Assembly (NCBI GenBank): GCA_951802425.1
Contig: OX637805.1
Location: 2,418,001-2,482,000 of the forward strand
DNA from: Clavaria fumosa
Taxonomy: Eukaryota > Basidiomycota > Agaricomycetes > Agaricales > Clavariaceae
DNA: 64,000 nucleotides
Direction of reading: 5' to 3'
This document shows, one piece after another, positions 47,377-49,328 of this stretch. The notes below the pieces were generated by a model, which ran no database searches, was not told where the DNA came from, and saw only the letters and a program-made list of their open reading frames with translations. The number at the start of each line of letters is the position of its first letter. The first letter of the stretch is position 1. A program made the translations under genes and the position numbers.

Positions 47377-49328
47377 ATGGCGAAAGGTCCCGCTCATACT
47401 GACAGTGAACTTGTGAAGGCAGTCCACGATGCTTATAGTGCCAAAGCTGTTGCAGGCGCAGACCCCAACCGTACGTGGCATCCTTGTGGATTTGAGGCAA
47501 CAGGAAAAAAAAATATGCCACATTCACTACAGAATCAAGCCACCTTGCCAAATCGTTTGGCTATACCGACGAACAACTCCAATCCATCCCCGCCGAATCA
47601 CACATGGGCCTTTCTTGCGGGAACCCTGTCGCCGCCGCCAGCGTCAAGGAGGTCTGTTCCCCTCTTCCTTTCCACGTTTCTCTGACATCTGACCTCAGTA
47701 GGGAGAACGTGTCCTCGACCTCGGGTCAGGGGGTGGGATCGACGTCCTCCTTGCTGCAGCCAAGACAGGGCAGAGTGGGCGCGCGATCGGACTGGACATG
47801 TCAGCTGTACGTCACTCATTCACCACATCGGACGGGACTTAGCGACCAAAAGGCGATGATCGATCTTGCGAGGAAGAACGCCTTGAAAAGGGGTTTCACA
47901 CCACCACAGGTAGCTTTCATTCATTGCTCTCTAACGGAGCCTCTCCCAATCAACTCGGACTCGATGGACTGCATCCTGTCCAACTGCGTAATCAATCTAC
48001 TTCCGCTTTCAGGGAAGGCAAGTCTGCTACGAGAGGTTTTCAGAGTGCTTAAACCTGGGGGAAGAGTAGTTCTCGACGACGTAAGGTTCCACCTTAATCA
48101 ATAAGGTTCACAATTCACCTCAACCATCAGGTTATTGCCAAAAAAGAGCTGCCCGATCACATTCTCAAGGACCTCACGTACCATGCCAATTGTATTGCTG
48201 GTGCTATTCAGATCGACCTTTATAGGCAACTCTTTACCGATGCCGGATTCAAAGGTACTTGCTCTCCAGAATGTTCCGCACCTCTGGTCACGCTCTAAAA
48301 AGGCACACTTTTCGAGATGTCAAATTTCGCGACACGAAGAGCGACCTGAGTGTCTGGATCGATGGCACCAAAGCAGGCGGGACTCCTTCATGCTGCAACT
48401 CAGAACCAGCGCAAATAGATCTACCCGCGCCCATCTCCACAGACGTGTCGTCCGAATTGAAGCACCCCATTTCGTCATGCTGCTCGAACGGTGACGCGTT
48501 GGCGTTAACCGTGGACAAGGCCGGAATGAGAGTGCCCTCCCAAGCCGTCGCACACAATGACGTCACGTACGACATCAACGACTGGATTGGTGCGTTGCGC
48601 CCCCCCGACATTCCTCGCCTCGAGCTCCATTTTCGAGCTCCTCTGTTCTCACGTTGACGCATCCGTCTGTTCACACAGCGTCGTACCAGATCTACGCTAT
48701 CAAGGACCCTTTACCCCAGGAACCACTCCAGCGCTGGTGGGACGCGTACCCGCCCGCGCTCTCGCAGCCCGCCAAGATGTCCCCCGAGCGGCTCGCCGCC
48801 CTCATGGGAGAGGAGGAGAAGGGCACGAGCGGCGGCGGCGGCGGCGACCGCGGCCGTCTCGGCATCATCGACGTGCGCGGGGCGGACCGCGCGGGGGGGC
48901 ACGTCGCGGGGAGCGTGCAGTGCCGCGCACAGACGTTCTTCGACGCGCTGGACACGTTCCACCGCGCGTTCGGCGGGGCGCGCGCGCTCGTGTTTTACTG
49001 CAGCTCGTCGAGGGGCCGCGCGCCGCGCTGTGCGGGGTGGTACCTGGACTATCTGGCGCGCGTCGCGCCGCTGGAGCGGGAGCGGCGAGAGGAGAAGGGG
49101 AGTGTGGATGGGAGTGTGGATGGGATCGTGGATGGGAGCGCGGGTGGGAGCGCGGATGGGATCGCGAATGGGACCACGAACGGGACCACGAATGAAACCA
49201 CGAACGGGACCACGAACGGGAGCGCGGGCGCGAGTCCGCCGCGGCCTGAGGTCTTTATCCTGGAGGGCGGAATCAAGGAGTGGCTGCGGCGGTACGCAGA
49301 CGTGGAGGCTCTAGTGGCCTACGACTAA
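47377..49328 (+). CDS. Arsenite methyltransferase fused to Cdc25/Acr2-type rhodanese
   Basis: Seven exons (47377-47470, 47533-47651, 47702-47806, 47853-48080, 48131-48254, 48317-48589, 48679-49328) join in phase to 530 residues. Residues 1-240 are an AS3MT/ArsM-type enzyme: SAM motif GERVLDLGSGGGIDVLLAA, and three Cys placed as in ArsM, Cys60 (GLSCGNP), Cys151 (SNCVINL) and Cys203 (NCIAGAIQ). Two CC pairs (249-250, 278-279) may bind As(III). Residues about 345-525 are a rhodanese: GIIDVRGADRAGGHVAGS, VFYCSSSRGRAPRCAGWY and EVFILEGGIKEWL. The catalytic loop Cys422-X5-Arg428 has the seven-residue length of Cdc25/Acr2 enzymes, not sulfurtransferases. Between these motifs is an 11-unit tetrapeptide repeat. 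If active, it would reduce arsenate and methylate arsenite; that coupling is inference. Confidence 0.88.
49098..49229 (+). repeat. 12-bp coding minisatellite, 11 units
   Basis: Eleven 12-bp units, related to GGGAGTGTGGAT and GGGACCACGAAC, encode tetrapeptides (GSVD, GIVD, GSAD, GTTN and variants) in the rhodanese domain of the fusion gene, between the catalytic loop and the final strand-helix. The unit length keeps the frame, so copy number can vary without breaking the protein. Confidence 0.9.

What the first reader, a model, noticed from the sequence alone, without database searches (positions are those of the whole stretch)
47377..49328. Arsenite methyltransferase fused to a Cdc25/Acr2-like rhodanese
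Seen: one phase-consistent seven-exon frame (530 residues) holds an ArsM/AS3MT-type domain with three Cys at the family positions (60, 151, 203), two CC pairs, and a C-terminal rhodanese whose Cys422-X5-Arg428 loop has Cdc25/Acr2 length. Known: Acr2 enzymes reduce arsenate to arsenite, and ArsM/AS3MT methylates arsenite. Inference: a single protein could channel arsenate through arsenite to methylated arsenic without free As(III). I know of no described enzyme with this exact layout, but could not search.
Basis: partly seen in the sequence, partly recalled or inferred. Interest (0 to 1): 0.85.

Follow-up and report, generated by a model that had tools for sequence, protein, structure and literature searches.

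The report
Mushroom arsenic methylase with built-in reductase-like domain
This fungal gene makes one protein that joins an arsenic-methylating enzyme of bacterial type to a fungal domain of the family that contains arsenate reductases; the same fusion occurs in many mushrooms and related fungi and is a testable candidate for how they make methylated arsenic.

Summary
Seven exons (47377-49328, +) encode a 530-residue protein: an ArsM-type arsenite methyltransferase with its three arsenic-binding cysteines (C60, C151, C203), then a complete Cdc25/Acr2-class rhodanese with a C422-X5-R428 loop. It is not a one-off: of 122 relatives listed by two searches, 120 carry both domains, from nine Agaricomycete orders, including Agaricus bisporus and Coprinopsis cinerea. 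Nine are whole frames on contigs of 1.4-1.8 kb, as expected of spliced transcripts. C422 is kept in 117 of 117 and R428 in 115 of 117 aligned copies. By profile the rhodanese matches plant Cdc25, yeast Ych1, the Leishmania As(V)/Sb(V) reductase and human Cdc25, not sulfurtransferases. Its kin are standalone fungal proteins; the ArsM half is nearest to bacterial enzymes. So a bacterial-type enzyme was joined, probably once, to a fungal domain. Nine paper searches found no description. Reduction of arsenate, or of methylarsonate, by the fused domain is the best reading but untested. Tempering it: the genome has a separate ACR2-like gene, and A. bisporus was reported to reduce arsenate, hardly methylate inorganic arsenic, yet convert methylarsonate to dimethylarsinate. 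Channelling is unsupported.

The parts
47377..47470 (+). exon 1, start codon, residues 1-32 (part)
   Evidence: splice model; aligned with relatives
47533..47651 (+). exon 2; C60 codon at 47616-47618 (aligned with As(III)-binding C72 of CmArsM)
   Evidence: C in 108 of 111 aligned rows
47702..47806 (+). exon 3; SAM-binding DLGSGGGID motif (motif name recalled)
47853..48080 (+). exon 4; C151 codon at 47985-47987 (aligned with CmArsM C174)
   Evidence: C in 119 of 119 aligned rows
48131..48254 (+). exon 5; C203 codon at 48191-48193 (aligned with CmArsM C224)
   Evidence: C in 118 of 119 aligned rows
48317..48589 (+). exon 6; ArsM tail with CC pairs C249/C250 (conserved) and C278/C279 (not conserved)
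48590..48678 (+). intron 6, 89 bp, GT-AG, 19 residues before the start of the rhodanese domain
48679..49328 (+). exon 7; last ArsM strand ASYQIYAIK to 48704, linker, rhodanese domain from W334 (48735), stop codon
   Evidence: the strand lies inside the methyltransferase fold in the model of relative P0006
48735..49325 (+). Cdc25/Acr2-class rhodanese domain, residues 334-530; loop C422 (48999-49001) to R428 (49017-49019), C432 (49029-49031)
   Evidence: Pfam; profile against PDB; C422 117/117, R428 115/117, C432 101/116 aligned rows
49094..49221 (+). 12-bp tandem repeat inside the rhodanese domain, in frame, absent from 120 aligned relatives
   Evidence: four frame-keeping GT-AG alternatives exist, all with weak donors

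Best explanation
The gene encodes a bifunctional arsenic-detoxification enzyme of Agaricomycetes: an ArsM of the type found in Planctomycetota and Acidobacteriota, fused end to end with a complete fungal Cdc25/Acr2-class rhodanese. Most likely mechanism (inferred): the C422-X5-R428 loop cradles a pentavalent arsenical oxyanion, arsenate above all, as it would phosphate; C422 attacks arsenic, glutathione or another thiol resolves the adduct, and trivalent arsenic leaves. The ArsM half binds trivalent arsenic at C60/C151/C203 and methylates it with S-adenosylmethionine to MAs and DMAs. Shown here: domain identities, conservation of both active sites, single-gene architecture, recurrence across the class. 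Inferred: reduction by the fused domain and its substrate, and methylation itself (by family). Not shown: direct hand-over of As(III).
For: Gene model and both domains. ArsM half best matches the solved arsenic methyltransferase entries 4kw7/4fr0 (E 3.3e-25), with C60, C151 and C203 on their C72, C174 and C224. Foldseek with the model of relative P0006 ranks ArsM structures 1-11, though the methyltransferase part of that model has low confidence. Rhodanese profile best PDB matches: 1t3k (labelled dual-specificity tyrosine phosphatase; AtCDC25, recalled) 1.5e-13, YGR203W/Ych1 3.6e-11, 2j6p (labelled Sb(V)-As(V) reductase) 6.5e-11, then CDC25A/B/C; other chains start at E 0.025 and the first labelled rhodanese-like is at 0.22. 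120 of 122 listed relatives have both domains; 96 of the 99 with both near complete keep all three As cysteines, C422 and R428. Members of the Acr2/Cdc25 group reduce As(V) in yeast, Leishmania, plants and humans (review PMC3317726, passages). Hebeloma mycelium makes methylated arsenic up to TMAO (PMC13314834, passages) and H. cylindrosporum carries the fusion (P0162), though the species tested are others. Only one ArsM-type gene, an Acr3 efflux gene and no ArsH hit in this genome.
Against: I know of no assay of any member. Tyr replaces the His before the loop Cys in 115 of 117 aligned fusions. The same genome has a separate ACR2-like gene with an HCALSQ loop that groups with LmACR2, so arsenate reduction need not depend on this domain. 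Two relatives keep the protein but changed the loop Arg (P0202 to Lys, P0216 to Gln), and one keeps the loop but lost two As cysteines (P0227). A. bisporus data do not show efficient methylation of As(V) or As(III). Seven of the 49 standalone rows in the tree lie inside the fused branch: some look like true separate proteins, so the tie is not absolute. The ArsM half misses the NCBIfam cut-off. No other arsenic gene was seen in the window (20 of 48 selected frames scanned).
Confidence: 0.55

Rival explanations
1. The fused domain is a reductase of methylated pentavalent arsenic (MAs(V), DMAs(V)) that resets the methylation cycle, while ordinary arsenate reduction is done by the separate ACR2-like gene.
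For: A separate ACR2-like gene in the genome; in A. [quoted passage not shown] fusion to the methylating enzyme itself fits a between-steps role.
Against: No characterised rhodanese/Cdc25-class enzyme that reduces methylarsonate is known to me; DMAs(V) was hardly metabolised in the same work, and MAs(V) was the best accumulated species, so uptake could explain the data; whether A. bisporus has other methyltransferases was not checked.
Confidence: 0.2
2. The domain is a phosphatase of Cdc25/Ych1 type (protein or small molecule) whose link to arsenic is indirect, for example regulation, or a chance fusion that was kept.
For: The closest solved structures include Ych1 and Cdc25 phosphatases; the loop has Tyr instead of His; many fungi have the standalone form, mostly without any arsenic name.
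Against: Fusion to ArsM found in nine orders points to a shared substrate.
Confidence: 0.1
3. The domain is a sulfurtransferase or a thiol relay that makes thiolated arsenic or hands electrons to ArsM without binding arsenate itself.
For: Pfam class is Rhodanese; JGI names P0016, P0160 and P0240 rhodanese-related sulfurtransferase; a second Cys, C432, is kept in 101 of 116 aligned rows.
Against: Loop length is CX5R, the Cdc25/Acr2 length (the sulfurtransferase length CX4R is recalled); in the PDB the first chain labelled rhodanese-like is at E 0.22.
Confidence: 0.08
4. Artefact: two neighbouring genes read as one.
For: No transcript of this genome was available to me.
Against: One open spliced frame across the join; relatives annotated as one protein in many genomes, and nine that are Met-initiated and run to the end of the rhodanese on short contigs: P0016 439 aa/1411 bp, P0160 435/1438, P0161 435/1495, P0165 437/1395, P0185 433/1430, P0189 429/1394, P0193 429/1449, P0225 414/1385, P0143 420/1760.
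Confidence: 0.02

Closest known systems
Prokaryotic ArsM nearest to this one (e.g. Isosphaeraceae, Granulicella) and the structurally solved CmArsM
   Same: Three-cysteine arsenite methyltransferase core; CC-rich tail; a terminal D-V-N-x-x-A-A-S strand in 36 of 80 best ORFs, 35 of them among the 40 best-scoring
   Different: A profile of the fused rhodanese finds none in the ArsM frames of the 80 fetched prokaryotic loci; the fungal fusions are one branch, SH-aLRT 100, in a quick tree
Cdc25/Acr2-class rhodaneses: yeast Acr2p (recalled), LmACR2 (2j6p), AtCDC25/ACR2 (1t3k), Ych1 (3fs5), Cdc25
   Same: CX5R-type loop, C-x-x-S-x-x-R-[GA]-P core, family by profile (1t3k is printed with Ser at the Cys)
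   Different: Tyr instead of His before Cys; fused to ArsM; a fungal branch apart from these in a tree with long outgroup branches
Standalone fungal rhodanese-like proteins of about 150 aa, three of them named arsenical-resistance protein 2 by JGI
   Same: Same domain; 39% identity of the window domain to Cladochytrium P0032 over 135 columns; same G-R-x-P-R-C loop
   Different: No ArsM; of 90, 54 have His and 33 Tyr before the Cys (two of the 90, P0031 and P0045, look like fragments of fusions)
Other ArsM fusions: ArsR-ArsM (Brevundimonas, PMC10190100 passages), ArsM with AhpD or DUF2284 selenoprotein domains (NCBIfam names), ArsM-SelD (Naegleria, PMC5552862 passage), ArsM-ArsD seen here
   Same: ArsM joined to another arsenic or thiol/selenol partner
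   Different: Partners are a regulator, a selenoprotein or selenium enzyme, or ArsD, not a Cdc25/Acr2-class domain
Acr3-ArsC and ArsR-ArsC fusions of Actinobacteria (PMC6514093 passages)
   Same: Arsenate reductase fused to another arsenic protein
   Different: Unrelated reductase fold (recalled); the partner is efflux or regulation, not methylation

Membership tests
ArsM/AS3MT arsenite methyltransferase | SAM-binding class I methyltransferase core | tested here: met
   Methyltransf_31 E 3.5e-28; CmArsM 3.3e-25
ArsM/AS3MT arsenite methyltransferase | Three As(III)-binding cysteines (CmArsM C72, C174, C224; human C61, C156, C206 per PMC3877260 passages) | tested here: met
   The alignment printed puts C60, C151 and C203 on chain residues 72, 174 and 224
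ArsM/AS3MT arsenite methyltransferase | NCBIfam curated score for arsenite methyltransferase NF008823 (263 bits) | tested here: not met
   227.9 bits; the library is made for bacterial and archaeal genomes, so I read this as divergence, not as another family
ArsM/AS3MT arsenite methyltransferase | Methylates arsenite | not testable with these tools
   needs an assay
Cdc25/Acr2 class of rhodanese domains | Seven-residue CX5R active-site loop (sulfurtransferases have CX4R; recalled) | tested here: met
   C422-SSSRG-R428; C 117/117, R 115/117 aligned rows
Cdc25/Acr2 class of rhodanese domains | Profile similarity to solved members above sulfurtransferases | tested here: met
Cdc25/Acr2 class of rhodanese domains | Same fold as solved Cdc25/ACR2 | tested here: inconclusive
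   structure searches with the P0006 model were filled by methyltransferases
Acr2 arsenate reductases proper | HC(X)5R signature with His before Cys | tested here: not met
   Tyr421; Y in 115, H in 1, C in 1 of 117 aligned rows. Filed as an Acr2-class domain, not as an Acr2
Acr2 arsenate reductases proper | Groups with a characterised arsenate reductase in a tree | tested here: inconclusive
   Fused group is separate from LmACR2, AtCDC25 and Ych1, whose branches are very long
Acr2 arsenate reductases proper | Reduces arsenate | not testable with these tools
   needs an assay
Thiosulfate/mercaptopyruvate sulfurtransferases | CX4R loop (recalled) and family match | tested here: not met
   CX5R; first chain labelled rhodanese-like at E 0.22

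The most novel reading that the evidence does not exclude
An Agaricomycete-wide enzyme that runs a whole Challenger-type cycle in one chain: its Acr2-class domain reduces both arsenate and the methylated pentavalent intermediates, passing trivalent arsenic to the attached ArsM, and so supplies the methylated precursors (DMAs, TMAsO) from which mushrooms make arsenobetaine. It would have arisen when an ancestral fungus joined a bacterially acquired arsM to a native fungal rhodanese gene.
Probability: 0.22. Interest if true: 0.85.

Novelty: new variant of a known kind. Interest (0 to 1): 0.6.

Why it matters
Mushrooms are known for unusual arsenic chemistry. A 2026 paper on Hebeloma names the enzymes for As(V) reduction and As methylation as still to be identified (PMC13314834, passages), and a 2022 paper on A. 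bisporus speculates that an unknown methyltransferase turns MAs(V) into DMAs(V) and says the genes for arsenobetaine are uncharacterised (PMC9609160, passages). A conserved single-chain candidate carried by cultivated and genetically tractable species (A. bisporus, C. cinerea, a Hebeloma) turns that question into a knockout and an enzyme assay. It is also a clear case of a bacterial-type enzyme joined to a fungal domain that would act, if the reading is right, one step upstream.

Tried and rejected
Considered and rejected: (1) two separate genes: rejected on frame, homologue annotation and transcript-like contigs. (2) Sulfurtransferase: disfavoured on loop length and profile. (3) The 12-bp repeat as an unspliced intron: the four frame-keeping GT-AG options found start with GTCGCG or GTGGAT, unlike the donors of the six introns; kept as exon, not proved. 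(4) A loss of the first As cysteine in A. bisporus that would have explained its poor methylation of inorganic arsenic: my pattern missed it; the sequence has SCGTP, so the idea was dropped. (5) A prokaryotic source of the fused domain: a genome-contig scan with two peptide patterns found 41 stretches and no relative; none of 80 prokaryotic arsM loci carries it in the ArsM frame, and one weak hit lies on the other strand in L067. (6) Fold comparison of the rhodanese: the single model made (relative P0006, 14 sequences) has a well-predicted rhodanese but a weak methyltransferase, and both structure searches were filled by methyltransferases, so the rhodanese fold was in effect not tested by structure. 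(7) Distance between the two active sites: not measured, the better model could not be made. (8) Frequency of unfused ArsM in Agaricomycetes: not measured; the searches were seeded with fusions and list only the best 120 of 7844 hits, so 120 of 122 is not a prevalence. (9) Species of the window: not identified; the ArsM tree puts it inside the Agaricomycete fusions without a close named relative. (10) Papers: searches listed none that describes the fusion by title or in the passages I opened; listed papers that I did not open were judged by title and abstract start only; most subscription papers are not held. Passages only were read in PMC5398495 (plus outline), PMC5552862, PMC13314834, PMC9609160, PMC10190100, PMC10199152, PMC3877260, PMC5005798, PMC6514093, PMC3317726, PMC8618186, PMC12860867, PMC10470841, PMC11370035 and PMC7826186. 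Two of these treat Agaricomycete ArsM genes (PMC10199152, PMC10470841); the word rhodanese is not in their main text. In one search a first, pattern-based count gave the three cysteine motifs in 98 of 109 fusions; the alignment-based count replaces it.

Full report
What is in the sequence. Joining seven exons between 47377 and 49328 gives an uninterrupted 530-residue protein; the six introns are 46-89 bp, all GT-AG. Residues 70-221 match Methyltransf_31 (E 3.5e-28) and residues 373-429 match Rhodanese (E 1.2e-6). Among NCBI's curated families the best match is arsenite methyltransferase (NF008823, E 1.6e-67, 227.9 bits, under its cut-off of 263). The best solved structures for the first 250 residues are arsenic methyltransferase entries (4kw7, E 3.3e-25), and the printed alignment puts C60, C151 and C203 on their residues 72, 174 and 224, the arsenic-binding cysteines of CmArsM (PMC3877260, passages).

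Where the two halves meet. The bacterial ArsM proteins closest to this one end with a strand of the form D-V-N-x-x-A-A-S-V-x-V-x-A-x-K: 35 of the 40 best-scoring prokaryotic ORFs and 36 of all 80 have it. The window has DINDWIASYQIYAIK, ending at K323, and in the model of relative P0006 this strand is aligned as part of the methyltransferase fold. Standalone fungal rhodaneses have a W-x-x-x-[FYL]-P type motif in their first 45 residues in 75 of 90 cases, for example NWWDAYP; in the window this is W334-P339. So an almost complete ArsM is followed, after about ten residues, by what looks like a whole rhodanese protein.

How widespread it is. A search with the rhodanese half returned 20 proteins; a search with 14 full-length fusions listed 120 of 7844 hits; together 122 distinct proteins. 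By profile, 120 of 122 contain both domains; P0001 has only the rhodanese and P0220 only the methyltransferase. Ninety-nine have both domains near complete, and 96 of these 99 keep the three As cysteines, C422 and R428. Named sources include nine orders of Agaricomycetes: Agaricales, Boletales, Russulales, Gloeophyllales, Polyporales, Atheliales, Jaapiales, Geastrales and Sistotremastrales; one genus or species of each was checked in the taxonomy. Public records call many of them arsenite methyltransferase, and two JGI entries name both domains (P0016, P0160). The searches were seeded with fusions, so these numbers do not measure how often Agaricomycete ArsM is unfused.

One transcript. Nine of the relatives are Met-initiated frames of 414-439 residues that run to the end of the rhodanese, on contigs of 1385-1760 bp. 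Since the gene has six introns in this genome, such contigs look like spliced transcripts; the record types were not seen, so this is an inference.

What the second domain is. A profile of 13 fused domains matches 1t3k (plant Cdc25, 1.5e-13), Ych1 (3.6e-11), 2j6p (Leishmania Sb(V)-As(V) reductase, 6.5e-11) and then Cdc25 phosphatases; other chains appear from E 0.025 and the first labelled rhodanese-like at E 0.22. The loop is Cys-X5-Arg with the core C-x-x-S-x-x-R-x-P shared by those proteins (1t3k is printed with Ser at the Cys). Among the fusions the loop Cys is present in 117 of 117 aligned rows and the Arg in 115 of 117; the exceptions are P0202 (Lys) and P0216 (Gln). The residue before the Cys is Tyr in 115 of 117, where Ych1, LmACR2 and Cdc25 have His; among 90 standalone fungal relatives it is His in 54 and Tyr in 33.

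Descent. In a tree of 89 rhodanese domains the 35 fused ones form one branch with 7 of the 49 standalone rows inside it (99/98); next to it lie six standalone chytrid proteins (joint branch 96/66), and the other standalone rows are apart. Some of the seven look like true separate proteins (P0021, P0023, P0025), some may be fragments. Alignment columns are few, the bootstrap had not settled and outgroup branches are long. In a quick tree of 105 methyltransferases the 24 fused ones are one branch (100) in the part of the tree that also holds Planctomycetota and Acidobacteriota. This agrees with published trees that put fungal ArsM next to planctomycetes (PMC5552862, passages) and basidiomycete AS3MT among bacteria (PMC5398495, passages). 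The simplest history is one fusion of a bacterial-type arsM with a fungal gene early in Agaricomycetes, with some later separations; this is inference.

The rest of the arsenic kit. A search of the genome with the whole protein finds this gene and one weak rhodanese; there is an Acr3 efflux gene on another contig, no ArsH hit, and a search with a standalone fungal relative finds only these same two rhodaneses. The second one, on C6, has an HCALSQ loop and groups with LmACR2 (97/86). None of the 20 of 48 selected window frames that I scanned is an arsenic gene by Pfam.

How it most likely works. ArsM needs trivalent arsenic. Members of the Acr2/Cdc25 group reduce arsenate in yeast, Leishmania, plants and humans (PMC3317726, passages), with glutathione and glutaredoxin as electron donors in yeast (PMC8618186, passage). 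A domain of this class, catalytic pair intact, found joined to ArsM in nine orders, most simply reduces the pentavalent arsenical that precedes ArsM's substrate. Whether this is arsenate or a methylated intermediate is open. In A. [quoted passage not shown] The A. bisporus fusion P0222 has the three cysteines, so lack of an As site does not explain it. A role on methylarsonate, differential uptake, or expression in one stage would. In Hebeloma mycelium, by contrast, methylation up to TMAO was reported (PMC13314834, passages).

Precedents. ArsM is known fused to ArsR (PMC10190100), to selenoprotein domains (family names) and to SelD (PMC5552862), and bacterial arsenate reductases are fused to Acr3 or ArsR (PMC6514093). 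I saw no ArsM with a Cdc25/Acr2-class partner in print in nine searches. The kind, an ArsM fusion, is known; this variant appears undescribed.

Verdict. Observation confirmed; family assignment confirmed by sequence; function plausible and untested; channelling unsupported; not rare but apparently unstudied.

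Noticed in passing
L028 and L041 (Kuenenia and Pirellula MAGs), ArsM ORFs of 467 and 426 aa: ArsM fused to a C-terminal ArsD domain in Planctomycetota: Pfam ArsD E 1.9e-15 and 6e-21 on the last 75 residues.
   Followed up: partly
G000 contig C6:1688761-1689000 (-), L011: Separate ACR2/Ych1-like gene with an HCALSQ loop, apparently split by an intron inside the loop region; groups with LmACR2.
   Followed up: partly
window 49094-49221: In-frame 12-bp minisatellite adds 44 low-complexity residues to the rhodanese domain, absent from 120 aligned relatives.
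   Followed up: partly
P0227 (Amanita polypyramis): Fusion that lost two of three arsenic-binding cysteines (positions of C60 and C203) but keeps the rhodanese loop: a possible natural separation of function.
   Followed up: no
window 37306-38760 (-) and 51206-53269 (-): Two frames with HMG-box matches (E 7.5e-5, just under cut-off, and 6.2e-11) on either side of the fusion gene.
   Followed up: no
window 96-1832, 7035-10319, 23219-26748, 29540-33199: Frames with retroelement domains of Copia and other LTR types.
   Followed up: no
L067 (Chloroflexi MAG), minus-strand frame at 4091: Weak match (E 2.6e-6) to the fused rhodanese profile close to a bacterial arsM gene.
   Followed up: no
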